Positions 39,860 through 51,824 of a stretch of 64,000 nucleotides of DNA are shown piece after piece. The position numbers and the translations under genes are program-made. Origin of the DNA: Terriglobia bacterium (GTDB lineage: Bacteria; Acidobacteriota; Terriglobia; Terriglobales; Acidobacteriaceae); contig JAIQGK010000010.1 of NCBI GenBank assembly GCA_020072645.1, forward strand, positions 62,001 to 126,000, in the 5' to 3' direction. The notes under the pieces are model-generated. The model had not been told where the DNA came from. It ran no database searches and saw only the letters and a program-made list of their open reading frames with translations. Every line of letters begins with the position of its first letter. Positions within the stretch are counted from its first letter, which is position 1.

Positions 39860-42238
39860 ATGAAGCAGAAGAGAATGCCGCTGCAGACCATGCGGCCCGT
39901 TGGACATCCTTCCCCGTTTCCACCGCGACGCGATTATTCTTCGCTTTCGATCAAGGATCTGCTTGATGCGCGTGACGCCTATCATGTGTATCTCGCCAGC
40001 CTCGAAAATGTCGTCGGAACAGCAGTGGGCCGGTATCTTATTCACCATAAAGACTGGTATGCAGAGCATCCTCCGGATCAGCCGCGACCGGAAGGCTATC
40101 CGCGCGTCACGGAGCCCAGAACGCTGTTGAACTCCATTATTCGGCCATGGTCCTGGCCAGCCGTATTGGTCTTCGTGCGTGACTGGCAAGAAGCGGGAAA
40201 GCTCGGCTCCGAGCTTGTTCCCAGAACTCTGTACCTGCAGGATGGCCGCGCCATACCCACATGCGTGATTCTCGCCCAGCCTGATGAAGCGCCAGCTACA
40301 CTGGCTCCAGGCCCTTCCTTCAACAGTTCCATGCTCGGCGGCGGTTATTCCTGCATGCGCCAGCATCAGGGCGAGCAGAGCCTAGGCACTTTCGCTTGCC
40401 TGATTCGTAAAGGCGGCTCCTACTACGCACTTACGAACCGTCACGTTGCAGGTGGGGAAGGCGAAGAGGTGCGCGCATTCATTCGCGGCGCGTACCAGCG
40501 TGTCGGAGTGACGTCAAGCATCGCCGTCGATCGTCAACTGATGAGCGGAGCATTCCCCAGTTGGGCCGGTTCGCGGACCTATCTCACGCTCGATGCAGGC
40601 CTTGTCCGTATCGACGACATACGCCAATGGACATCCCAGGCTTTTGGCATTGGCGAAATCGGAGAAATCTTTGATGCCACAGAGCAATCGATCACGCTTG
40701 ACCTGATCGGCTGCCCGTTGCGAGCTTTCGGGGGTTCCAGCGGCGTTTCCGAAGGCGAAATCATGGCGCTTTTCTTCCGCTTTGCTTCGTCTGGTGGGTT
40801 CGATTACGCAACCGACCTGTTGATTGGCCCCAGAATGAATCAGGGTCCGGATCACCCGCTGACACAACCTGGTGATTCCGGGACTGTCTGGTACTACGAT
40901 CCGCCCCAACAGGCGCAGCAAAAGGAGACAGAATCGCAGGATTTTGACGACCGGATGCTGCCGCCTGACCGTGGCAGACGCGCGCGCCGACTTCGGCCAG
41001 TGGCAATGCAGTGGGGCGGCCAGCGGTTTGTGGATTCGGCCGGGATTCGCAGCTCATTTGCTCTGGCCTCATTCATGTCCACAATTTGCCGATCTCTAGA
41101 TGTGGAGGTGGTTCGCAATTGGAGCACGGGCCATGACGAGTATTGGGGGAAAATTGGTCACTTCAGTATCGGCTGGAAAGCTTGTGATCAGGTATCGGGC
41201 ACTTTGAGTGAGCTCCTAAGAGCTAATCAGGAGCGGATAGGCTTTGACGATGAAACCATCAGCCAAGGCAAGGAGTTCCGAGTTGGACGCTCCGGCTTTG
41301 TTCCACTCGTTGACGTTCCAGATTACGTTATGGTCACACCAGGCTCAGGCCGCCCCAACGAGGCGATTCAGCACTTTGCCGACATCGACATTCAAGACAT
41401 AAATGGCGGTCCATCGCTCTTGGACCGTTGCTTCAAAGATCCGAAGAACATCTCAGCCAAGGTTTGGAAGGATTATTTTGATGGCTTTGCCGCTCGTGGT
41501 GCAGGACCCGAAGAGGGGTGCCTCCCGTTTCGTGTCTGGCAAATATGGGAAGCTATGGTCGAGTACTTGAAAAATGGTGACGTTCTGCATTTTGTGGCTG
41601 CCGGCGGTATCATGGGCCACTATGTTGGGGATGCTTCACAGCCCTTACATTGTTCGTATCTGCATCACGGTGTCCCTCCCATGATGGAAGTGGATGGCCG
41701 GGAATACCCCTTTCCTCGTGATAGCGATGAGTTTGCGGCTTTCAAGAAAACCGCAGAGGCCAAAATCCATGGGATTTACGAGGAGCAAATGCTGGAGGTT
41801 GACACCGCAACCGCGCTGGCCGGCGTTGATGAGGCGCTGCAGAATGGCCACGAAGACGTGCCCGACATTGAGACCGGCCATGATGCGGGTATCGCGATCA
41901 TCAAATTGATGCACGATGCACAAGGCCGGCTTTCTCCCATGGACATCATTAAAGCTGATGATCCGAGCCTTGGACCAACCGCCCGCTCAAAAGCTCTGTG
42001 GGAAAACAAAAAGGTGCGCGAAGCGACTATCCAATCGCTGGCTGATAGCGTGATGATTCTTGCTGCGCTCTGGTCCAGTGCATGGAAGGCCGGTAAAGGG
42101 AACAAGATCAGTAAATCGAAGATAAAGGAGTTCTCTGAAAAAGAACTGCAAAAGATCTACCGCAAAGAAAAAGACTTCATCCCGAGTCTGAGCCTTCAAG
42201 AAATGGCCGATAGCGGGGAATTCGAACCTCCAAAGTAG
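39860..42238 (+). CDS. trypsin-like serine protease fused to an S1/P1-nuclease-like zinc domain
   Basis: 792 residues with no signal peptide. Part one (about 160-400) has a chymotrypsin-type triad in order: His195 in YYALTNRHVAGG, Asp245 in YLTLDAGLVRI, Ser340 in LTQPGDSGTVW. Part two (about 440-760) resembles zinc phospholipase C/S1-P1 nucleases: YWGKIGHFSIG, RPNEAIQHFADIDI, and the signature GHYVGDASQPLHCSYLHHG (His587, Asp591, His597), then the helix with ETGHDAGIAI. A basic C-terminal helix (KISKSKIKEFSEKELQKIYR) ends it. Such a fusion is not one I recognise. It points toward the RiPP locus on the other strand. It may act as an effector or in self/non-self degradation, but this is guesswork. 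Confidence 0.65.
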   Translation: MKQKRMPLQTMRPVGHPSPFPPRRDYSSLSIKDLLDARDAYHVYLASLENVVGTAVGRYLIHHKDWYAEHPPDQPRPEGYPRVTEPRTLLNSIIRPWSWPAVLVFVRDWQEAGKLGSELVPRTLYLQDGRAIPTCVILAQPDEAPATLAPGPSFNSSMLGGGYSCMRQHQGEQSLGTFACLIRKGGSYYALTNRHVAGGEGEEVRAFIRGAYQRVGVTSSIAVDRQLMSGAFPSWAGSRTYLTLDAGLVRIDDIRQWTSQAFGIGEIGEIFDATEQSITLDLIGCPLRAFGGSSGVSEGEIMALFFRFASSGGFDYATDLLIGPRMNQGPDHPLTQPGDSGTVWYYDPPQQAQQKETESQDFDDRMLPPDRGRRARRLRPVAMQWGGQRFVDSAGIRSSFALASFMSTICRSLDVEVVRNWSTGHDEYWGKIGHFSIGWKACDQVSGTLSELLRANQERIGFDDETISQGKEFRVGRSGFVPLVDVPDYVMVTPGSGRPNEAIQHFADIDIQDINGGPSLLDRCFKDPKNISAKVWKDYFDGFAARGAGPEEGCLPFRVWQIWEAMVEYLKNGDVLHFVAAGGIMGHYVGDASQPLHCSYLHHGVPPMMEVDGREYPFPRDSDEFAAFKKTAEAKIHGIYEEQMLEVDTATALAGVDEALQNGHEDVPDIETGHDAGIAIIKLMHDAQGRLSPMDIIKADDPSLGPTARSKALWENKKVREATIQSLADSVMILAALWSSAWKAGKGNKISKSKIKEFSEKELQKIYRKEKDFIPSLSLQEMADSGEFEPPK

Positions 42239-43366: not shown

Positions 43367-43474
43367 GCTGCCCGATCATCTGATCTCCTGGTCACGCGCG
43401 ATCATCCGATCTGCGTTTTCTCCGTGTCTCAGCGACTCCGTGGCAGGTTTGCCCGCTGCCCTCATCCGCCACTT

Positions 43475-44569
43475 TCACGCTTCTATCGAAACATAGCTGG
43501 CATCTGGATCAGCTTCTTCCGGCAACTGCTGGTCTTTGGCCGGGGATGCGAGGTAGTCACTCAAGGAAGGAAATTCTGACTGTCTTGCTTCGAGCATCTG
43601 CCGTGATGATCCTTCCGGCGAGGTCAGAAAAGCCAGGAATTTTTCCTGCACATGAAGACCGGCATTGGCTGCGTCGAGCCAGAGGAACTGTCCACCTTCA
43701 TTGACTTCAAGGAACCACCACCGGTCCTGATTGTCGATGGCGAAGTCAAAGCTGCCGCAGGCGATACCGGATTTGGCCGCGAACGCCAGCACGGATTTTT
43801 CAACCTCCGGCGGTGTGATGACGGCTTCTACTCTCACTAAGCCTTGCGTGGCGTCCCCGCGCCAGTCGAGCGCGCCCTTGAGGCTGTGAAGAGCATAGGA
43901 ATACACTGCCGCGCCCAGCAGTACCATGCGTACGTCGAATTTCTTGACGACCAACTCCTGGTAGATGGCAGGCGCGTAGGTGAGCACTTCGTCGCTGGGC
44001 AGCTTGTCCGCGCTGAGTTCAAAAGTCTCAGTAACCATCACCGGGCCACCCTGCTCTTTTTCCCAGATGTGCGTGGAGAAGGTCTTGCAGATCATCCGTT
44101 GAGGATTGCCGCGAAAATACTCTCGTACGGCTTGCGGCGAGTTGGTCATCAACGTCCGGGGCACGTTCATGCCGCAGGCGCGGGCCAGCACGAGCTGGAC
44201 GGATTTATTGGTGATGAAGCGCGAGGCCGCGTATTTGTTGACCACGCGCACTGGCAAAGCTTCAAGAAGATACATCAGAGAATCAAAAAACGAGCGGTAT
44301 TCATTGGCTGCAAACTTTGCGTCTTCAGGGGCCGTTTGCGGATTGGGCTTGGGGTCCACTGGCTTGCGAATCCAAACCACGTCGCCGGACTCAACCAGAT
44401 GATGGCCAAATTTGAGCTGCGTATTCGCGAGCAAAGAGATGGATGCCTGTTTGGTCTCTGCCCATCCCAGGCCCGCCCAGCAGGCCACGGAGTACCCGGC
44501 TTGCTCCAGCGCCCACTTCAACGGGGCGGTATGACTATCATTCTCCGGAGCGGTGATCAATATCTTCAT
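43475..44569 (-). CDS. ATP-grasp ribosomal peptide ligase (MvdD/MdnC-like RiPP maturase)
   Basis: 364 residues from ATG 44569 (AGAGGGAAG 6 bases upstream). ATP-grasp enzymes of this family close omega-ester or omega-amide rings between Thr/Ser/Lys and Asp/Glu side chains of a precursor. Family traits: N-terminal MKILITAPENDSHTAPLKWA, NKSVQLVLARACGMNVPRTL (leader-binding region follows in MvdD/MdnC), PQAVREYFRGNPQRMICKTF, the conserved KKFDVRMVLLGAAVYSYAL and the metal-binding ACGSFDFAIDNQDRWWFLEV then NEGGQFLW. The two genes directly upstream encode matching small peptides. C-terminal about 45 residues are extra and acidic. Specific ring chemistry is inferred from family. Confidence 0.85.
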   Translation of the reverse strand: MKILITAPENDSHTAPLKWALEQAGYSVACWAGLGWAETKQASISLLANTQLKFGHHLVESGDVVWIRKPVDPKPNPQTAPEDAKFAANEYRSFFDSLMYLLEALPVRVVNKYAASRFITNKSVQLVLARACGMNVPRTLMTNSPQAVREYFRGNPQRMICKTFSTHIWEKEQGGPVMVTETFELSADKLPSDEVLTYAPAIYQELVVKKFDVRMVLLGAAVYSYALHSLKGALDWRGDATQGLVRVEAVITPPEVEKSVLAFAAKSGIACGSFDFAIDNQDRWWFLEVNEGGQFLWLDAANAGLHVQEKFLAFLTSPEGSSRQMLEARQSEFPSLSDYLASPAKDQQLPEEADPDASYVSIEA

Positions 44570-44686
44570 CTTTTTCTTCCCTCTTAAGCTGCAGCGGACG
44601 GCGCGATTGGACACCGTCCGCGCAGGATTCCTTGCTTTGATTTTGCGCGGGCAATTCATGAGGCGGACGCCCGCGCAAGTTTCGGA

Positions 44687-44839
44687 TCAACCTGTCGTAT
44701 CACCATCGCAGCCGACCGTCCCCGGGCGGGGGATGGTGCATACGGTGAGCGTCGAGAAACCGCCGACCACATGGTCGGCTTCGCTAGGCGCCAACTCTTT
44801 GGCGCCCTGACGGCCCAGTACTCTATTGTCATTGTTCAT
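44687..44839 (-). CDS. RiPP precursor peptide 2 (graspetide-like)
   Basis: 50 residues with GAAAGGAAAAAGCAC before ATG 44839. Leader: NNDNRVLGRQGAKELAPSEA. Putative core after VVGG: FSTLTVCTIPRPGTVGCDGD then TTG. It is a clear paralogue of the peptide at 44875: shared RVLxRQxAxELxPxE in the leader and TLTxC...GTxxCD..T.G in the core. Core hydroxyls (Ser29, Thr30, Thr32, Thr35) and carboxylates (Asp45, Asp47) are the groups joined by ATP-grasp ligases; two conserved Cys (34 and 44) are an added feature. The ligase gene begins 117 bases downstream. Confidence 0.82.
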   Translation of the reverse strand: MNNDNRVLGRQGAKELAPSEADHVVGGFSTLTVCTIPRPGTVGCDGDTTG

Positions 44840-44874
44840 GTGCTTTTTCCTTTCGTGTCCACCGCAAGTTGAAG

Positions 44875-45024
44875 TTAGCCCACCGTGTCGCAGTCCTTGG
44901 TTCCAAGAGTGGGATTCCAGGAACAGATCGTCAACGTGTTGATATTGCCGCTGACATGCTCAACTTCCGCCGGGGTCAGCTCACGTGCGTTTTGGCGGCT
45001 CAGTACTCTGGTGCTTTCTTTCAT
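44875..45024 (-). CDS. RiPP precursor peptide 1 (graspetide-like)
   Basis: 49 residues, with a strong AAGGAAAGGAAAAGACT before ATG 45024. Leader: ESTRVLSRQNARELTPAEVE, followed by HVSG (a possible processing site like the xxGG/SG ends of many leaders). Core: NINTLTICSWNPTLGTKDCD then TVG. Conserved with the second peptide: TLT, a Cys two residues later, GT, CD and the T-x-G end. It is the first gene of the unit; the second precursor follows after 35 bases. Ring residues would be Thr30/Thr32/Thr39 and Asp44/Asp46 by analogy with graspetides, unproven. Confidence 0.82.
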   Translation of the reverse strand: MKESTRVLSRQNARELTPAEVEHVSGNINTLTICSWNPTLGTKDCDTVG

Positions 45025-45389
45025 AGTCTTTTCCTTTCCTTTTTTTGATGTAGTTGTGGTGTGCCGATGGATGCGACACTTTCCATTGAAGATAGCGAGT
45101 GATCGATCTCACTGCGGCTATCGCCATCGGCGAAGCCGGTGACGGTGATCAGTGGACAATGGCACCGTGCAAACGGTGGTTTGGACTGCGCCAGGACCGT
45201 TGGACGGCTTCCAATTCCATGATGCCATCTCCCGCGCGAGCCAGATAAGAATTCTATAAGTCTATCCGGCCAAACCCGCGAAATTCAAGGAATTGGAGAC
45301 GTAGAAAGCGCTCTGGAGTGCCAAATCAGACACGCCGATAAGTGCCATATTGGAGCCGTTTTACGAGAGGGAAGCCGGAAACAAACTGC
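45025..45389. other. 365-base gap upstream of the precursor genes
   Basis: No gene of useful length on either strand and no third precursor copy. A TATAGAAT word occurs on the reverse strand near 45250-45257 but lacks a properly spaced -35, so the promoter for the RiPP unit is not assigned. The gap is AT-richer near 45240-45300. Confidence 0.4.
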
Positions 45390-45992
45390 TTACCGGCCGG
45401 GTGGCTCGATGGTGATTCCCTGGTTCCAGTCTGTGAACCTGGCGAAGACGCTTCCGTCCCGGGCCTTGAAATCGCGCGGCAAATGGTCGTCCAGGCCGAG
45501 GCAGACGGTATAAACATTGTCCACTGTCCACTCGCGGCAGCTTTCTCCTTCTGCTGTGCGCTGCGCGCCGCGAGCGAATGAGGCGTGATGCCGCACCGCA
45601 CGGTCAAATTCAGCGGTGATGGCCATGGCTTTGGCTACAGCACTGCCAAACAGTACAGGCTGATCTTTGCTGAAGAGGCACGGGTTGGGAGTGTAACCTT
45701 TGTCGCTCGAGGGCAACCCGTCTGTCCACCACTGGTCGCCCACGCGAATGGTGTGCCCTGCCTGCGCCCCGGTCAGCGCAAGGTCTTCGCGGTCCGGACA
45801 AACCACCGCCACTTTGCCCCACAACCCTGCGCCGTTTGCGGAATGCATCTCCAGTGAAACTCTCCAGCTTCTGGCGGCATGCAGCGCCTCATTGGCTTGC
45901 GCGATCTCGGGATCGACCCGCAGCGAATAGAACACGCCAAGCAGGACCAGCAGTACTAGCGCCGCGGCCATCCCAAGCAGTTTCAATGTCAC
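45390..45992 (-). CDS. membrane-anchored protein, paralogue B of a tandem pair
   Basis: 200 residues from GTG 45992, which overlaps the upstream stop (GTGA). N-terminal signal-anchor TLKLLGMAAALVLLVLLGVF, then an exported domain with paired cysteines (VAVVCPDRED, NPCLFSK, ESCREWTV, YTVCLGLDD) and the end FARFTDWNQGITIEPPGR. It shares the layout C..W.V...C(L/I)..DD(H/N)LPR......W N..(I)(T/P)I(E/D)PP with its neighbour. This looks like a distant LolA/LprI-type beta fold that measures or binds a small molecule, but I cannot assign it. Same strand as the RiPP genes. Confidence 0.7.
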   Translation of the reverse strand: MTLKLLGMAAALVLLVLLGVFYSLRVDPEIAQANEALHAARSWRVSLEMHSANGAGLWGKVAVVCPDREDLALTGAQAGHTIRVGDQWWTDGLPSSDKGYTPNPCLFSKDQPVLFGSAVAKAMAITAEFDRAVRHHASFARGAQRTAEGESCREWTVDNVYTVCLGLDDHLPRDFKARDGSVFARFTDWNQGITIEPPGR

Positions 45993-46651
45993 TGGCGCAG
46001 TTCCGCCGGAGGGTCGATGGGAAGCGGCTTGTTCCAGTTGGTAAGGACCATCTGCATGGAGTTTTCCGCAGTACGCATGCGCCGGGGAAGATTGTCGTCA
46101 GGATTGATGCAGTAATCGAAACTCTTCTCCGTACCATTGGGTTGATGGAAAGTTACTTTCCATTGGCGGCAGGGCTCGCCGGAGACCTCGTCCATCTCCC
46201 CTTTTTCAATGCGTGCCAGCGCGCGAATCAATTTAAATGCAGGCCAGGGCGCGGCCTGTACCGCTGAAGGAGCTCCTGCGCAACCAGGTGCGAGGCGGCC
46301 GCTGATGCCGGGAAGCGCGCCCCAGGCTCCGGTTGAGGGTGATTTTAGATACTCTGCCGCGCCAATGGTAATTCGGTCCGTCTCCGGATAGGGTTGCGAA
46401 TTGGGCGGAGGATCCAGGAATGTGGTCCTTGTGATCATATGTGATCTGTCTGGGCACGCGATTTCAAGCAGGTTGTACCACGATGTGGCTTTGTCATGTC
46501 CCGTCAGTTCCAAACGGTAACTCTGCGCATTGTTCAGCGCAGCTTCAGTTTTCAGAAACTGCTGCTCGCCTGCGCTGGGCCTGAAGAATGAGTATCCCAA
46601 CCCAACCAGAAGAAGGATGGGAGCTATACGAATCAGAAAGTACTTGAGCAC
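45989..46651 (-). CDS. membrane-anchored protein, paralogue A of a tandem pair
   Basis: 220 residues from GTG 46651 (AAGGA 9 bases upstream). The open frame reaches back to 46789, but the GTG gives a signal-anchor start (LKYFLIRIAPILLLVGLGYS) parallel to its paralogue, which also starts with GTG. Exported part: AALNNAQSYRLELTGHDKAT, EIACPDRSHMI, EPCRQWKVTF, YCINPDDNLPRRMRT, VLTNWNKPLPIDPP. The pair overlaps by four bases and is surely cotranscribed. Function unknown. Confidence 0.7.
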   Translation of the reverse strand: MLKYFLIRIAPILLLVGLGYSFFRPSAGEQQFLKTEAALNNAQSYRLELTGHDKATSWYNLLEIACPDRSHMITRTTFLDPPPNSQPYPETDRITIGAAEYLKSPSTGAWGALPGISGRLAPGCAGAPSAVQAAPWPAFKLIRALARIEKGEMDEVSGEPCRQWKVTFHQPNGTEKSFDYCINPDDNLPRRMRTAENSMQMVLTNWNKPLPIDPPAELRQ

Positions 46652-46753
46652 GATGCACGTCCTTGCCGCGTCAATTGCGTGCCTTAATTTGCCCCAGAGT
46701 GATGAATCTTGAAAAGTTACGTTGGTTTCCCGAGGCAATAAGGACGAGCTCGG

Positions 46754-46775
46754 ATCCGCGTCCATCCGCGGTAGA
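46754..46775. repeat. ATCCGCG...ATCCGCGGTAGA dispersed repeat, copy 2
   Basis: ATCCGCGTCCATCCGCGGTA at 46754, matching 43345 except in the middle. It is in the gap between the paralogue pair and the Ig-like protein. A hairpin GGCAGCCCGGGTACGAGCTGCC near 46794-46815, followed by GTTCTTCC, could act as a terminator for the Ig-like gene's neighbour, but its T-tract is poor. Confidence 0.45.
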
Positions 46776-46863
46776 TTGGTTCCAAACAAAAACGGCAGCC
46801 CGGGTACGAGCTGCCGTTCTTCCGACGAAGGAGCGCCCTCAGAGCGCCTTGGAGAAAGTCGAT

Positions 46864-47823
46864 TTACTGCACGTTAACGTTTTCCGTCAGGCGATAAAGC
46901 TTGCCTGCCGTGTCCCACGCCTGCACCACCAGAATGTGAGTGCCTTTGGCAGCGGAAATCTGCTGGTCAAAGGTCGGCCCGGAAGAAGCGCCCACTAAAG
47001 CGCCGTCAAGATAAGCCTTCATGGCCGTGATCGATGCCGTATTGTTCTGCACGCTGGCATCCACCCGGAACGGCGATTGCACATCGTCCCCATCATTAGG
47101 AGTGGTCTGATAGATGCCCGGGTTGCAAGTGCTGCCTTTGGGCGGGCAGTCAGCCTCATAATATGTCTTGATGCCTACGCTGCTCTTGTAAACGGTGTTG
47201 TTGGTGTCCCAGGCCACCACGGTCAGGGTATGGCTGCCGGGAGAGCTGCTGATGCCGCCGGCGACCACGCTGCTTTGTCCGGACGCAGGCGCGAAATCGA
47301 AAACGTCAGTGCTGTCCACGTACGCTCGAACAAATTTGATGGCGGTGTTGCCCTTAAAACCGGCGGTAAAGGCAATATTCTGTGAGATCACCGAACCGGT
47401 GGTTGGAGCGCAGATGCGAACGCCCACGCCGGTGACCGGGCAGCTAAAGGGCAGATTGCCGGTGACGCTGAAGTATTCTGCCGCCTGATAAAGCCGGCCA
47501 AAGTCGTCCCATGCATTGATGACCAGATGATGCGTGCCGTTGGAGACGCCCCCCTCAAACAAGCTGAGCGAACCGCCGCCATTCTGGAAGATCAGCTTGC
47601 CATCAATATAAACCTTCATGTTGGTAATGCTGCCAGAAGTCGGGTTGGCCGTGGCTTCAAAGTGCGGTACCTGGTAAACGGTGGAGTTGGCGCTGGGCTG
47701 GCAAATGGCCAGATGGCCGCTGGCCGGTTCAGGACAGGCAGCGGATGCTTGCAAAGAAACGCATAATGCGAACGCGACGACTGTGAAGCTGATCTTGAGA
47801 TTAGGCAGGGATGGGAACTTCAT
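46864..47823 (-). CDS. secreted protein with three Ig-like repeats
   Basis: 319 residues. Signal peptide (ISFTVVAFALCVSLQASA), then three repeats of about 90 residues. Each has a Cys-rich lead-in (CPEPASGHLAICQP; CPVTGVGVRICAP; CPPKGSTCNPGIYQ), a strand set ending in (K/R)(V/A)Y(I/V/L)D, and HxLxVxAWDxxxxxY (HHLVINAWDDFGRLYQ; HTLTVVAWDTNNTVYKS; HILVVQAWDTAGKLYR). This is the pattern of bacterial Ig-like/Big domains in Acidobacteriota surface proteins. Probably an adhesin or structural secreted protein; no enzyme motif. Confidence 0.8.
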   Translation of the reverse strand: MKFPSLPNLKISFTVVAFALCVSLQASAACPEPASGHLAICQPSANSTVYQVPHFEATANPTSGSITNMKVYIDGKLIFQNGGGSLSLFEGGVSNGTHHLVINAWDDFGRLYQAAEYFSVTGNLPFSCPVTGVGVRICAPTTGSVISQNIAFTAGFKGNTAIKFVRAYVDSTDVFDFAPASGQSSVVAGGISSSPGSHTLTVVAWDTNNTVYKSSVGIKTYYEADCPPKGSTCNPGIYQTTPNDGDDVQSPFRVDASVQNNTASITAMKAYLDGALVGASSGPTFDQQISAAKGTHILVVQAWDTAGKLYRLTENVNVQ

Positions 47824-48365: not shown

Positions 48366-48459
48366 GGAGAGGTGGCCGAGTGGCTGAAGGCGGCGGTTTG
48401 CTAAACCGTTATAGGGGCTAACACCTCTATCGGGGGTTCGAATCCCCCCCTCTCCGCCA
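48366..48459 (+). tRNA. tRNA-Ser, anticodon GCT
   Basis: 94 nt class II tRNA with long variable arm: acceptor GGAGAGG/CCTCTCC, D-arm GGCCGAGTGGCTGAAGGC, anticodon loop TTGCTAA (GCT at 48400-48402), variable arm TATAGGGGCTAACACCTCTA, T-arm CGGGGGTTCGAATCCCCCC, discriminator G and an encoded CCA. It reads AGC/AGU serine codons. A tyrosine integrase gene ends 51 bases after it, so its 3' end is the likely attachment site. Confidence 0.97.
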
Positions 48460-48510
48460 GAATCTGTAAGTCCTTCCAGCAGAGCAATTTCTAGAAGTGC
48501 CAAGGTTTCT

Positions 48511-49671
48511 TCACTGCAACACGATTGTCGGCGATTCGGCCGCCGGTTGCATACTGGTTGCATAAATCGCTTCCAGTGTGCGCATTGCGGCAGTGGCATC
48601 CAAACTGACCGACTTTACATAGGCATTCATCGTGGTGCTGAGATTCGAATGCCGCAGTATGGCCTGAATGACTTTGTCCTTCACGCCAAGCCGGTAAAGA
48701 TTGGTTGCCAGACCCCTGCGGAAAGCATGCCAGCCGTGCCACTGGATGCCGGCTTTCCCCAGCATTGGTTTGATGACCTCAAACGCCAGCATGTCAAAGT
48801 TCATCGGGCGTCCAAGACTGTTTGGGAACATTAGGCCGCTTGTCGGATTCCCGGCGGCCTGCCGCTTCTGCTCGAGGAACCGTGCCAAAGGTGCGATCAC
48901 CGGAATGGGCGCCGAACTCTTGGCTGTCTTGGGCTCACCGATATGACCCCGCCAAACCGACTGGGTAATCCGGATCTGCTCGCCGTCGTAGTTCTCCCAC
49001 TGGAAACCCCTGAGCTCTCCCTTGCGTGCGCCGGTGAATGCAGCCGCCGCAACAATGGGAGCAATGCCTGGTGGGACCACGACCAACATCCGCATGATCT
49101 CCTCAAGCGAGTAAGCGTGGGTTTCCGCGCTTGCTCGCGCCTTGGGGATCGGCACATCCCGCATGGGATTCGGCGAGTTCAGTATCCCGATGCGCCGGGC
49201 ATAGCTGAACACTCCGCTCAACATGTTCTTGATGTGCCCCAAGGTCCTCCGCGTCAAATCCTCGCTACGAGCGATGTCCAACAAGAGCTGTTCACCCTCA
49301 ACCGGCCTGAAATCTCGCATTGCGATTTCTGTCCGAGGTTTCAGGTATCGCAGCCACATATTCTTGTAGCCGCGGTAAGTGGATGGGCGCTTTTGCTCTT
49401 CGATGTATGGCAAGTAGCGGTTATCGACGAAAGTTTCCAAGGTCATAGTGCTTTCCGGTGTGTGAGTGCCATCATTAAAGGGCTGCAGAAATTCTGCTGC
49501 GAGCACCTGCGCTGCACGCTTGCTTCGGTACTGCCCCGAAGCTGCACAGAGCTTTTTGCATTTCTGTAAGCGAACTGCCTCGCCGCCCTGCAAAACGTTG
49601 TCATAGTAGCGGAGATACCAGTTATCTCCTTTGCGAAAAACATAGCCTGACTGATGACGAGTCCGTTTCAT
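48511..49671 (-). CDS. tyrosine recombinase / phage-type integrase
   Basis: 386 residues. An N-terminal AP2-like arm-binding part (RKGDNWYLRYYDNVLQGG), a SAM-like core-binding domain (MTLETFVDNRYLPYIEEQKR), and a catalytic domain with Arg in FTGARKGELRGF, His-x-x-Arg in HGWHAFRRGLATNL, His in ILRHSNLSTTMNAYVKS and the Tyr nucleophile of the same stretch. It ends 51 bases from the tRNA-Ser 3' end. Complete, so the element could have remained mobile until its other genes failed. Its start overlaps the Xis stop by four bases (ATGA). Confidence 0.9.
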   Translation of the reverse strand: MKRTRHQSGYVFRKGDNWYLRYYDNVLQGGEAVRLQKCKKLCAASGQYRSKRAAQVLAAEFLQPFNDGTHTPESTMTLETFVDNRYLPYIEEQKRPSTYRGYKNMWLRYLKPRTEIAMRDFRPVEGEQLLLDIARSEDLTRRTLGHIKNMLSGVFSYARRIGILNSPNPMRDVPIPKARASAETHAYSLEEIMRMLVVVPPGIAPIVAAAAFTGARKGELRGFQWENYDGEQIRITQSVWRGHIGEPKTAKSSAPIPVIAPLARFLEQKRQAAGNPTSGLMFPNSLGRPMNFDMLAFEVIKPMLGKAGIQWHGWHAFRRGLATNLYRLGVKDKVIQAILRHSNLSTTMNAYVKSVSLDATAAMRTLEAIYATSMQPAAESPTIVLQ

Positions 49672-49904
49672 TGCTTCTCCTTTCCACGGCCTCGCCCCAT
49701 ATCCCTGTTGTTAGCACCAACTATACGCCTTTCCGCCCAGGCGTCCAGCTCAGGGCTGCCCCACCGGAACCTCACGTACTTACCAAACCTCACATGCGGC
49801 AAAGGATCTTCCGCGCGCTGGCGCACACGCTCACGAACCCAGGTTTCTGGCACATTCCAGCGAGAGGCGAGCTGTTTGCTGTCAATGAATTGGTACTCTG
49901 CCAT
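49668..49904 (-). CDS. excisionase/AlpA-like HTH protein
   Basis: 78 residues. Winged-helix MerR/HTH_17 pattern: FIDSKQLASRWNVPETWVRE then VRFGKYVRFRWGSPELDAWA. Placed directly before the integrase with a four-base overlap, the normal position for a recombination directionality factor. A basic C-terminus (GRGRGKEKQ) ends it. GAGCAT upstream is a modest ribosome-binding site. Confidence 0.75.
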   Translation of the reverse strand: MAEYQFIDSKQLASRWNVPETWVRERVRQRAEDPLPHVRFGKYVRFRWGSPELDAWAERRIVGANNRDMGRGRGKEKQ

Positions 49905-50033
49905 ATGCTCCTCTTGAATTGCTCATCCGTTCTGCCGATCAAAGGTGCTCTTCTTTTTTGGTCATACCGAGGGGTGTTCGCTGCTAGGGCATTAAGTTTC
50001 AGGCGTAAATGGTCGCAACTTATGCAAATGTGT

Positions 50034-50903
50034 TCACTTGCTCTGCTCTGCGATGTATTCTTGTGCTCGGGCCTCAGCTTCCCATTTCTTCTCGGCCAAC
50101 TGCTGGTCTGTGAGCGGCGGCGGAAAGTTGTAAGGCTTCTTCGATTCAGACTGAGATTTTTTCTTTGCCTGGTCTTCCGTGAGTGCAGTTCTAAGTTGGG
50201 TACCCGCGGTTAAAGTGCCCGTCCGCAGTTCGCGCCGGGTGTTCAAGGCGCGCCGTTTCGTCCACTCTTCTGGCGATGGTGTAGTTTGTCTCATTGCGAG
50301 TTCGGGCAGGAGGTGATGCAAGTCCTCGGGAAGCTGCAAAGGGAAGCATTTAGTGGACTCATATGCCTTATAACCGGCTAAGAAATCATCGCGCCTGAAA
50401 TGAAGTTCACTACCCGGAGTTTGTTCGATCGCCTTTAACCCTCCCGCGAATCGGACCGCATAGGTAATCTTCGGCGGTAACTTTGGGGGATACTCCATGA
50501 TCAATTCGCCAGTGGTCTCATGCCGGCCTCGATAAATCCCGCGGCCTTCGCTTCCGTAGCAGCCGAGATAGCTGATCACAGTGAGCCACGCTTGCTGGGC
50601 TTCCGATTCTTGAGTCTTTTCCTGGTTTAGGCCTGCACGCTCACGGATATCCGCAAGTGTTGGGGTAAATCTACATTCCCGAATACAAGCGCTGATTAAT
50701 GCGTCAAATGCTGCCCCTCCAATCCGCCTAAAGATCAGTTCGAACTCTGAAAGGTAAAGATCATTTGCTTCCACAGTCAGCGGCTGCCCCGGAAATGCAC
50801 TCTGCAATGTTGCTAATCTTTTCGCCAGCCATGCGTCCAGTTCGTCTCCGCTCGAGGGCGGTGTTGAGGTTGCTGGCAATAGCTTCCGTTTTGCCTGTTC
50901 CAT
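50034..50903 (-). CDS. phage-type helicase-loader-like protein
   Basis: 289 residues from ATG 50903 (AGAAGGA 5 bases upstream; an in-frame ATG at 50939 is possible). The first half is all-helical with FELIFRRIGGAAFDALISAC and RECRFTPTLADIRERAGL, the RFxPxxxDIRE pattern seen in loaders and inhibitors of replicative helicases of phages (G39P/DnaT-like N-domains). The C-terminal part is basic and low in complexity (KKKSQSESKKPYNFPPPLTD). It overlaps the preceding initiator gene by 143 bases. Assigned by position and one motif, so tentative. Confidence 0.5.
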   Translation of the reverse strand: MEQAKRKLLPATSTPPSSGDELDAWLAKRLATLQSAFPGQPLTVEANDLYLSEFELIFRRIGGAAFDALISACIRECRFTPTLADIRERAGLNQEKTQESEAQQAWLTVISYLGCYGSEGRGIYRGRHETTGELIMEYPPKLPPKITYAVRFAGGLKAIEQTPGSELHFRRDDFLAGYKAYESTKCFPLQLPEDLHHLLPELAMRQTTPSPEEWTKRRALNTRRELRTGTLTAGTQLRTALTEDQAKKKSQSESKKPYNFPPPLTDQQLAEKKWEAEARAQEYIAEQSK

Positions 50904-51824
50904 ATTTTCCTTCTTTGCTTTGACCGAGAGGCTTGCCATACCTATTCAGAGGCCCTTCGGAAAATTCCAAAATTGTGCCGATCCAGCGGTAAATTTCTTC
51001 AGCTGCACTGACCTCTCCGGCTGCGACACTTTGAGCGCGATAGCCTAGGCAGCGTTGGAAGGTTTCTAGGGTGGTGTTTGGGTGCTCTCGCAGCCATATA
51101 TCCAGGTTCCTGAAATCCTTCGCGGTTGGCTGAAAAGTATCGCGGCCGCTCAAACGCTCCCGGTAGATCTTCAGGTATTCGATAAAACGTCGACGTCGAT
51201 AGTTGGGTGTCGCCTCATGCGACAATGTTATTTTTCTTTTGATATTTTCTTTTGATAGTTTCTTTTGTTGGTTTACTGAGTGACCCCCAAAGGGTTCATT
51301 CTGTGGACCCGAGACAGCTGATTCAGTCGAAGGGTTAACTGAGTTTCGGGGTCCACTTAGTGGACCCCTTTTCTTGGCGGTTCTGGAGTTTTCCCGGAGG
51401 TAGGTAAGAACATTTATAGGCGCACAATTCAAATTAATCTTCCACATGTGCCCGAGTTGGCGTCCGGTTCTGGAATCTTTTGCCATGGGCCCCTTCTGCA
51501 ACAGGCCGGCTGCGGCGAGCATCTCGCACCGTTCCGAACACCATTTGTCAGTAAGGCCAGTCGCTTTCGAAAGCTGAGTTGCAGAGATCGCGTCCCGCTC
51601 CTTGTGCCAGCATAGGTCTTTCGGACAATGTGGGAGATAATTTTCCAATCGCTTGGCTCCACTATCGCGAGGAACTTATCCAGAAGAATATTCGGAAACT
51701 GGGTGGTGTTAGGCTTCAGCTCCCTCGCGGGCAGTTCAGCCTCGCTAATCGCCTTTGTCGTCGCGGTGCTTCCGAGTCCATGCGATTCGGCTTCATCGGT
51801 ACTGTTTCCAGCCGAATTCCTCAT
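50761..51824 (-). pseudogene. replication initiator gene (phage O-like) with a one-base frameshift
   Basis: The first part (51824 to about 51610) ends ...NTTQFPNILLDKFLAIVEPS then DWKIISHIVRKTY; the second frame continues WHKERDAISATQLSKATGLT then DKWCSERCEMLAAAGLLQ. Families of this kind read RKTYGWHKERDAIS without a break, and the DNA TATGCTGGCAC lacks one base of TATGGCTGG. Total length is 1064 bases, one short of a multiple of three, as expected for a single deletion. The product would be a 354-residue winged-helix protein with a basic middle region. It starts right after the AlpA-like stop. Alternative: a programmed frameshift, less likely as no slippery run is present. Confidence 0.7.

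What the first reader, a model, noticed from the sequence alone, without database searches (positions are those of the whole stretch)
43475..45024. Compact RiPP locus: two related precursor peptides plus an MvdD/MdnC-type ATP-grasp ligase
Seen: two 49-50-residue genes in tandem (44875-45024 and 44687-44839), each with a strong purine-rich ribosome-binding site and a shared leader/core pattern, directly followed by an ATP-grasp gene with the traits of graspetide ligases. Known: MvdD/MdnC/PsnB ligases make omega-ester or amide rings between Thr/Ser/Lys and Asp/Glu in a core peptide next to their gene. Inferred: this makes a graspetide. The leader does not carry the PFFARFL motif of microviridins and the core lacks TxKxPSD, so it belongs to none of the classical groups I know.
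Basis: partly seen in the sequence, partly recalled or inferred. Interest (0 to 1): 0.92.

Follow-up and report, generated by a model that had tools for sequence, protein, structure and literature searches.

The report
Acidobacterial graspetide precursors and their ligase
This short stretch encodes two tiny precursor peptides and the enzyme that most likely staples them into rings (a graspetide), and it is one outpost of a much larger set: about 34 related peptides and four such enzymes in the same soil bacterium.

Summary
Two tandem 49- and 50-residue genes with a common leader precede an ATP-grasp gene on the minus strand (43475-45024). Sequence, predicted fold and catalytic residues place the enzyme among graspetide synthetases (MdnC, CdnC, PsnB). 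It falls under every curated NCBIfam cut-off and sits in a well-supported Acidobacteriota clade. In 399 genomes of the class, the close ligase and the precursor occur in the same 6. The window genome, very likely Candidatus Angelobacter SRVP-2, holds 34 precursor candidates: 2 here, 14, 3 and 7 before three paralogous ligases, and 8 with no adjacent ligase. A long peptidase-exporter frame precedes precursors in 9 of 10 precursor-bearing genomes tested; 0 of 8 others has one. Sixteen orthologous precursor pairs show purifying selection in leader and core (dN/dS 0.13 and 0.14). Cores carry Thr/Ser before Asp/Glu, and cysteines in even numbers in 67 of 70. Best reading: a distinct graspetide lineage making side-chain ester rings (at most two each here), probably plus a disulfide, with the exporter shared across loci. 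No ring was observed, and membership in published RODEO groups 1-43 could not be checked. New variant of a known kind.

The parts
44875..45024 (-). Precursor P1 (49 aa). Leader residues 1-27 (45024-44944), ends SGN; core INTLTICSWNPTLGTKDCDTVG (44943-44878)
   Evidence: leader profile E 8.8e-13; the profile includes this peptide; orthologue in L042, dN 0.110, dS 0.438
44687..44839 (-). Precursor P2 (50 aa). Leader residues 1-27 (44839-44759), ends GG; core FSTLTVCTIPRPGTVGCDGDTTG (44758-44690)
   Evidence: leader profile E 1.4e-12; the profile includes this peptide; absent from the orthologous locus L042
43475..44569 (-). Graspetide synthetase (ATP-grasp ligase, 364 aa); probable start ATG at 44569, not 44659
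44570..44686 (-). P2-ligase gap holding two GC-rich hairpins (about 44678-44643 and 44625-44589); possible read-through attenuator or RNA-stability element
   Evidence: MFE -49.0 kcal/mol, z -3.97; 13 of 16 precursor-ligase gaps have z below -1.5
43461..45242 (-). Cassette conserved with L042 in two blocks (87% and 83% DNA identity; P2 lies in the part missing from L042)

Best explanation
A graspetide cassette. The ligase recognises the shared leader (RVLxRQxA(R/K)ELxPxExxHVxG in P1 and P2), phosphorylates core Asp side chains with ATP and lets Thr/Ser hydroxyls attack, closing omega-ester macrolactones. P1 and P2 each have only two core acids (D44/D46 and D45/D47), so at most two rings each. 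The paired cysteines (C34/C45 and C34/C44) probably then form a disulfide. The leader is cut at the small-residue (GG-type) site, most likely by the C39 peptidase-exporter encoded elsewhere in the genome before the 14-precursor array, so the window cassette would depend on it in trans. The product is probably a secreted protease inhibitor, as characterised graspetides were said to be in 2022 (PMC8939145, passage). Shown here: genes, enzyme family, catalytic residues, leader-ligase association, selection on P1 and on the cores of relatives, exporter co-occurrence. Inferred: ring formation, ring number, disulfide, trans export and inhibitory function.
For: NCBIfam graspetide-ligase models hit it: TIGR04187 2e-47, MvdD 2.2e-35, MvdC 7.6e-32. 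PDB sequence hits: MdnB 2.4e-21, CdnC 5.5e-21, PruB (9bou), AMdnB, MdnC, PsnB, and then only a nanobody at E 0.54. The model (pLDDT 90.3) has graspetide synthetases (PruB by its title an ATP-grasp ligase) as its 31 best Foldseek rows; RimK starts at rank 32, and one MdnB chain falls lower, at rank 42. K122, K162, R214, D235, R237, D275, E288 and N290 are the same in all 42 aligned rows (window included) and in the five solved synthetases aligned. Ligase at E<=1e-40 and precursor at E<=0.001 occur in the same 6 of 399 class genomes. Leader profile: as above. Cores: >=2 T/S and >=2 D/E in 70 of 70; T/S precedes D/E in 0.834 of pairs against 0.500 (sd 0.026) in 2000 shuffles. dN/dS 0.13 (leaders) and 0.14 (cores) over 16 orthologue pairs; Asp/Glu changed in 1 of 49 sites, Cys 0 of 24, T/S 7 of 98, Gly 4 of 38, other 27 of 179; D/E+T/S+Cys against 'other', Gly left out: Fisher p 0.0012. 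C39 frame of 700 aa or more in 9 of 10 precursor-bearing and 0 of 8 precursor-free genomes (Fisher p 0.0004).
Against: No chemical or transcript evidence. All NCBIfam scores are far under the curated cut-offs (161.9 against 350 bits for TIGR04187). No C39 domain lies in the window, and P1's site is SGN (its orthologue's TGS), not GG. One precursor-bearing genome (G143) has no C39 frame of exporter length. At looser thresholds the link breaks: two same-family genomes (G066, G111) have distant ligases (E 2.9e-25 and 1.2e-16) but no precursor of this family (where at most 16 candidates per genome were scored), and 45 of 66 non-Acidobacteriota loci had no upstream leader hit at E<=0.01. One orphan candidate (C5:124371) has a single core acid. 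Related peptides are not independent, so the shuffle test and the cysteine parity overstate significance.
Confidence: 0.88

Rival explanations
1. The ATP-grasp enzyme adds something to the peptides (amino acids, as RimK adds glutamate, or another cap) instead of closing side-chain rings.
For: RimK has the same overall fold and appears from rank 32 of the structure search and as a weak profile hit (TIGR00768, 1.3e-4). ATP-grasp ligases that join peptides are also known in RiPP pathways (pheganomycin, passage of PMC7794033).
Against: The 31 best structural rows are graspetide-type ligases, and the E-values of the three best graspetide profiles are about 27-43 orders of magnitude better than RimK's. 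The cores carry an ordered Thr/Ser-then-Asp/Glu pattern and keep it.
Confidence: 0.05
2. A graspetide locus in decay: a satellite cassette, without exporter, that no longer makes a secreted product.
For: No C39 domain in the window; in the related MAG L042 P2 is missing and another precursor is broken.
Against: Ligase dN/dS 0.20 and P1 dN/dS about 0.25 against L042; all catalytic residues intact; an exporter gene exists elsewhere in the same genome.
Confidence: 0.06
3. The peptides are bacteriocins or signals with a GG leader that work unmodified, and the neighbouring ATP-grasp gene is incidental.
For: GG-type leaders; weak bacteriocin-leader profile hits for several relatives, one of them (a Legionella peptide, L091) over the TIGR01847 cut-off, 18.1 against 15.7 bits.
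Against: Ligase and precursor in the same 6 of 399 genomes; a precursor directly upstream of each Acidobacteriota clade ligase scanned; leader shared with ligase-linked ORFs in Pseudomonadota.
Confidence: 0.02

Closest known systems
Microviridins and chryseoviridin (ligases MdnB/MdnC, AMdnB, CdnC)
   Same: Same ligase fold and catalytic residues; small leader-core precursors beside the ligase, several per locus in some (PMC8939145 passages).
   Different: No PFFARFL-type leader and no TxKxPSD core (0 of 31); 39 of 70 cores without Lys, 46 of 70 with two or four Cys; ligase 18-23% identical to these chains in the structure alignments.
MvdD-like loci of Legionella, Lysobacteraceae, Oxalobacteraceae, Azospirillum and others (L054-L119)
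   Same: Ligases about 25-34% identical; 21 of 66 non-Acidobacteriota-clade loci other than the 13 Acidobacteriota ones have a recognisably common leader upstream at E<=0.01.
   Different: Acidobacteriota ligases form a separate clade, 18 rows, 100/99 support, stem 1.3 changes per column; different core patterns.
PruB (9bou, Streptomyces coelicolor) and the TIGR04187 family
   Same: Best family profile hit (TIGR04187) and third-ranked structural match (PruB).
   Different: Under the TIGR04187 cut-off (161.9 against 350 bits); PruB lacks the Trp of DWR.
Group 13 graspetides (graspimiditides)
   Same: A few are reported from Acidobacteria (PMC13001092, one passage), so graspetides in this phylum are not new as such.
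   Different: Those are defined by an isoaspartyl methyltransferase beside the ligase; no such Pfam family was hit in the window neighbours scanned or in the 10 neighbour genes.
Prochlorosins (lanthipeptides; recalled, not fetched)
   Same: Works like them: many precursors with one leader, few enzymes, some precursors far from any enzyme gene.
   Different: Different chemistry (ATP-grasp ligase, not lanthionine synthetase); here orthologous cores are under purifying selection.

Membership tests
Graspetides (class) | ATP-grasp ligase of the MvdD/MdnC/PsnB kind with catalytic residues | tested here: met
Graspetides (class) | Precursor with conserved leader and variable core encoded next to the ligase | tested here: met
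Graspetides (class) | Core with Ser/Thr/Lys donors and Asp/Glu acceptors | tested here: met
   70 of 70 cores, and 2 of the 3 weaker orphans
Graspetides (class) | Dehydrative side-chain rings (-18 Da each) | not testable with these tools
   needs coexpression and mass spectrometry
Microviridin group | PFFARFL leader and TxKxPSD core; MvdC/MvdD equivalog cut-offs | tested here: not met
   0 of 31 own precursors; 110.7 of 425 and 122.4 of 475 bits
TIGR04187 (GRASP_SAV_5884) | Curated score cut-off 350 bits | tested here: not met
   161.9 bits
Graspetide leader motif Phhx(1,2)h (about half of precursors in PMC8939145) | Pro followed by hydrophobics within the leader | tested here: not met
   0 of 31 own leaders
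Core signature TxxxTx(6-10)Dx(1-4)D (branch 1 of PMC8939145, candidate phyla) | That spacing in the core | tested here: inconclusive
   8 of 31 own precursors fit it; the pattern is loose
RODEO graspetide groups 1-43 (PMC13097080) | Place in the published sequence similarity network | not testable with these tools
   group tables are supplementary files, with no look-ups allowed; 'acidobacter' occurs 0 times in the main text
Group 13 graspetides (graspimiditides) | Isoaspartyl methyltransferase gene beside the ligase | tested here: not met
   not among the Pfam hits of the window neighbours scanned or of 10 neighbour genes at four other ligase loci
C39 (PCAT) export of GG-type leaders | Small residues at the cut site, and a peptidase-exporter in the genome | tested here: met
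   GG, GA, AA, GS or AG in 67 of 70; the other three end GN (P1), RG and GD; C39 frame of 700 aa or more in 9 of 10 precursor-bearing genomes; ABC domains shown for two of these exporters

The most novel reading that the evidence does not exclude
A distributed, genome-wide graspetide factory: four paralogous ligases and a shared exporter serve 34 precursors, eight of them orphans with no ligase beside them. Its products are doubly stapled: side-chain ester rings plus a native disulfide, or even native cysteine thioesters (thioesters are reported only as non-native linkages in the introduction of PMC13097080).
Probability: 0.4. Interest if true: 0.75.

Novelty: new variant of a known kind. Interest (0 to 1): 0.56.

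Why it matters
It adds an Acidobacteriota ligase clade, a leader that links it to part of the Pseudomonadota graspetides, and a large set of natural substrates (34 candidates in one genome, an array of 14) for a few enzymes: a ready-made test of what graspetide synthetases tolerate. Even cysteine counts point to a disulfide-plus-ester scaffold. The producers are common, uncultured soil bacteria known for rich NRPS/PKS gene content (PMC9723581, abstract and passages). [quoted passage not shown] Angelobacter species, which may be this one; the words graspetide, ATP-grasp, microviridin and bacteriocin do not occur in its main text.

Tried and rejected
AlphaFold with a 4-row alignment gave a useless model (pLDDT 41.9); a 42-row alignment fixed it. 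In viral contigs 18 stretches matched a pattern and none encoded a relative. Plasmids hold only distant ones: 77 records, all under 60% identity. No Pfam family reaches its cut-off for ligase or peptides, and PHROGs has none. I asked whether each precursor has its own 3' hairpin: the difference is small (31 precursors, mean MFE -19.5 against -17.1 after 143 long ORFs, p 0.02), so it carries little weight; the P1-P2 gap has no hairpin (z 0.91). Cassettes near tRNA genes (5 of 16 distinct loci, counted by hand) are a weak signal and not independent. I considered RimK-like glutamylation, a decaying locus and an incidental neighbour; see rivals. Rows dropped: one search kept the best 80 of 101 relatives (79 loci). 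One search used 48 of those 79 loci and one search used 41 (truncated, masked or near-duplicate rows left out). One search used 70 peptides and left out three weaker orphans read, one C2-array orthologue used only, masked, frameshifted or truncated copies, and the peptides of the more distant Acidobacteriota branch (L040/L052, L041, L053). In one search at most 16, and at most 5, candidates per genome were scored. A C1 C39 frame of 528 aa in the window genome was not examined.

Full report
WHAT IS THERE. On the minus strand, 45024 to 43475, lie P1 (49 aa), P2 (50 aa) and an ATP-grasp gene. The gaps are 35 and 117 bases once the ligase start is placed at 44569, where its relatives start. Both peptides have purine-rich ribosome-binding sites. 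No Pfam (at its cut-off), NCBIfam or PHROGs family covers the two peptides.

THE ENZYME. NCBIfam's graspetide-ligase models hit strongly but under their curated cut-offs: TIGR04187 161.9 of 350 bits, MvdD 122.4 of 475, MvdC 110.7 of 425. Sequence search of the PDB returns MdnB, CdnC, PruB, AMdnB, MdnC and PsnB, and after them only a nanobody at E 0.54 (also 51). A confident model (pLDDT 90.3, 42 rows) has chains of these same proteins as its 31 best Foldseek rows, E 3e-21 to 6e-15; RimK follows from 4e-14, and one MdnB chain ranks lower, 42nd. Lys122, Lys162, Arg214, Asp235, Arg237, Asp275, Glu288 and Asn290 are the same in all 42 rows (window included) and in the five solved synthetases aligned.

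THE GENOME. The window is part of contig C10 of a 6,435,735-base, 42-contig genome. A published vernal-pool MAG, SRVP-Angelobacter-2, is given as 6.44 Mb in 42 contigs (PMC9723581, abstract and passages), so the identity is very likely, but inferred. The genome has four close ligases, the three others 49-54% identical to this one, and two distant ATP-grasp relatives. A first search gave 31 places at E<=10, of which 30 were read out as precursors and one, at E 2.76, was not followed. A profile search gave 34 matches at E<=0.001: 2 here, 14 before the C2 ligase, 3 before C19, 7 before C3, and 8 with no ligase next to them (C1, C5, C6, C7, C29, C19:62725, C3:121519, C3:212113). Of the three weakest (C5, C3:121519, C3:212113), two have at least two core acids and one has a single one.

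RELATIVES. Of 399 genomes of the class, 6 have the ligase at E<=1e-40 and the same 6 have a precursor at E<=0.001. More distant ligases occur without this precursor: G066 and G111 in the phylum search at E<=1e-15. In the genus, 6 of 9 genomes have the ligase and 7 of 9 a precursor; in the seventh, 81% complete, the precursors lie at a contig end. A scan of the species-genome collection kept the best 80 of 101 relatives, 79 loci. Eleven of these fall in the Acidobacteriota clade of the tree, and L046 (67% identical, masked) was left out of it; beyond them identity drops from 37% or more to 26-34%, in Legionella, Lysobacteraceae, Oxalobacteraceae and others. In a 60-row tree the clade has 18 rows, 100/99 support and a stem of 1.3 changes per column; one further Acidobacteriota row (L120) lies outside it. 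Each of the four window-genome ligases pairs with one from another MAG in that tree, so the four types are older than the species.

THE LEADER. A profile built only from 30 leaders of the window genome finds ORFs within 1.5 kb upstream, same strand, of 12 of 13 Acidobacteriota and 21 of 66 other ligases at E<=0.01. Nineteen hits lie elsewhere: 12 are array members beyond 1.5 kb or beside the second ligase of L045, and the other 7, in other loci, look like precursors by eye. Twenty column-permuted profiles found nothing. The leader is therefore shared with part of the Pseudomonadota graspetides. It lacks the Phhx(1,2)h motif reported for about half of precursors (0 of 31; PMC8939145: abstract, section 5, first third of section 6 and passages seen).

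THE CORES. In 70 peptides of the clade every core has at least two Thr/Ser and two Asp/Glu; Thr/Ser precedes Asp/Glu in 83.4% of pairs against 50.0% (sd 2.6) in shuffles; 39 of 70 have no Lys; cysteine counts are 0 in 21, 1 in 3, 2 in 42 and 4 in 4; 38 of 70 fit T-x-(T/S)-x-C-(T/S/F)...(D/N)-G-(D/E). P1 and P2 keep TLT-x-C-(S/T) and a pair of Asp. Over 16 orthologue pairs dN/dS is 0.13 for leaders and 0.14 for cores; Asp/Glu changed in 1 of 49 sites, Cys in 0 of 24, Thr/Ser in 7 of 98, Gly in 4 of 38, others in 27 of 179. These peptides are functional and individually conserved, not a free-running diversity generator; only P1 of the window's two could be tested. Even cysteine counts suggest disulfides; relatedness weakens the statistics. 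Eight of 31 own precursors fit the loose signature TxxxTx(6-10)Dx(1-4)D of another published branch.

EXPORT. The genome has one C39 frame of exporter length (728 aa), directly before the 14-precursor array, with C39, ABC membrane and ATPase domains; a 528-aa C39 frame on C1 was not examined. In 18 genomes tested, a C39 frame of 700 aa or more occurs in 9 of 10 with precursors (not in G143) and 0 of 8 without; in each of the nine, one starts 2.1-2.3 kb upstream of a precursor, about one exporter gene (distances worked out by hand; p 0.0004). The window has none, so export in trans is inferred. The cut site is GG in 40 of 70; P1 ends SGN and its orthologue TGS.

RNA AND MOBILITY. The P2-ligase gap folds into two strong hairpins (z -3.97) and 13 of 16 precursor-ligase gaps have z below -1.5; a role in setting the peptide-to-enzyme ratio is a guess. 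In L042 the cassette sits, turned round, beside the same tRNA-Ser(gct) that lies 3 kb away in the window.

KNOWN OR NEW. Graspetides are well known; a 2026 survey counts 21,584 predicted graspetides and adds 19 groups to 24 (PMC13097080: abstract, sections 5 and 7, passages). Its group tables could not be read, so this may be one of its groups. A few group 13 graspetides are reported from Acidobacteria (PMC13001092, one passage). PMC9723581 reports an unspecified ribosomal-peptide cluster family shared within Ca. Angelobacter, which may be this one. Searches joining acidobacteri with microviridin, ATP-grasp or RiPP terms and graspetide with disulfide gave no title or abstract start that describes this system; of the papers listed I looked at passages only of PMC7794033 and PMC13001092 besides those named.

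VERDICT. Observation confirmed, interpretation supported, context enlarged. New variant of a known kind; interest 0.56.

Noticed in passing
window 48366-51648: tRNA-Ser(gct) followed by a phage-type integrase (48511-49671) and a gene with a replication-initiation O-like match (50761-51648): likely remains of an integrated element next to the graspetide cassette.
   Followed up: partly
window 45390-46789: Two related adjacent genes (200 and 266 aa), each with a hydrophobic stretch by eye and no Pfam, NCBIfam or PHROGs match; no relative among the other 13 loci compared.
   Followed up: partly
window 46864-47823: Protein with three Big_7 immunoglobulin-like stretches and a signal-like N-terminus by eye.
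   Followed up: no
window 39860-42238: 792-aa protein with a Nal1_C-like region (residues 247-342) and an unassigned C-terminal part.
   Followed up: no
L042:5178-5441: A broken copy of the C19:62725-type precursor lies upstream of the P1 orthologue, so that orphan type may once have belonged to this cassette.
   Followed up: partly
G000:C12:285433 and G000:C3:628112 (L022, L023): Two further, distant ATP-grasp relatives in the same genome, 28-31% identical over about 215-240 residues.
   Followed up: no
G462:C159:63560-67834: Three distant ATP-grasp relatives in a row in another Acidobacteriota genome.
   Followed up: no
L054-L119 (Legionella, Lysobacteraceae, Oxalobacteraceae, Azospirillum and others): Short ORFs with a related RVLAxxLAKEL-like leader directly upstream of many ligases; several Legionella cores end in a VDW-type motif, by eye.
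   Followed up: partly
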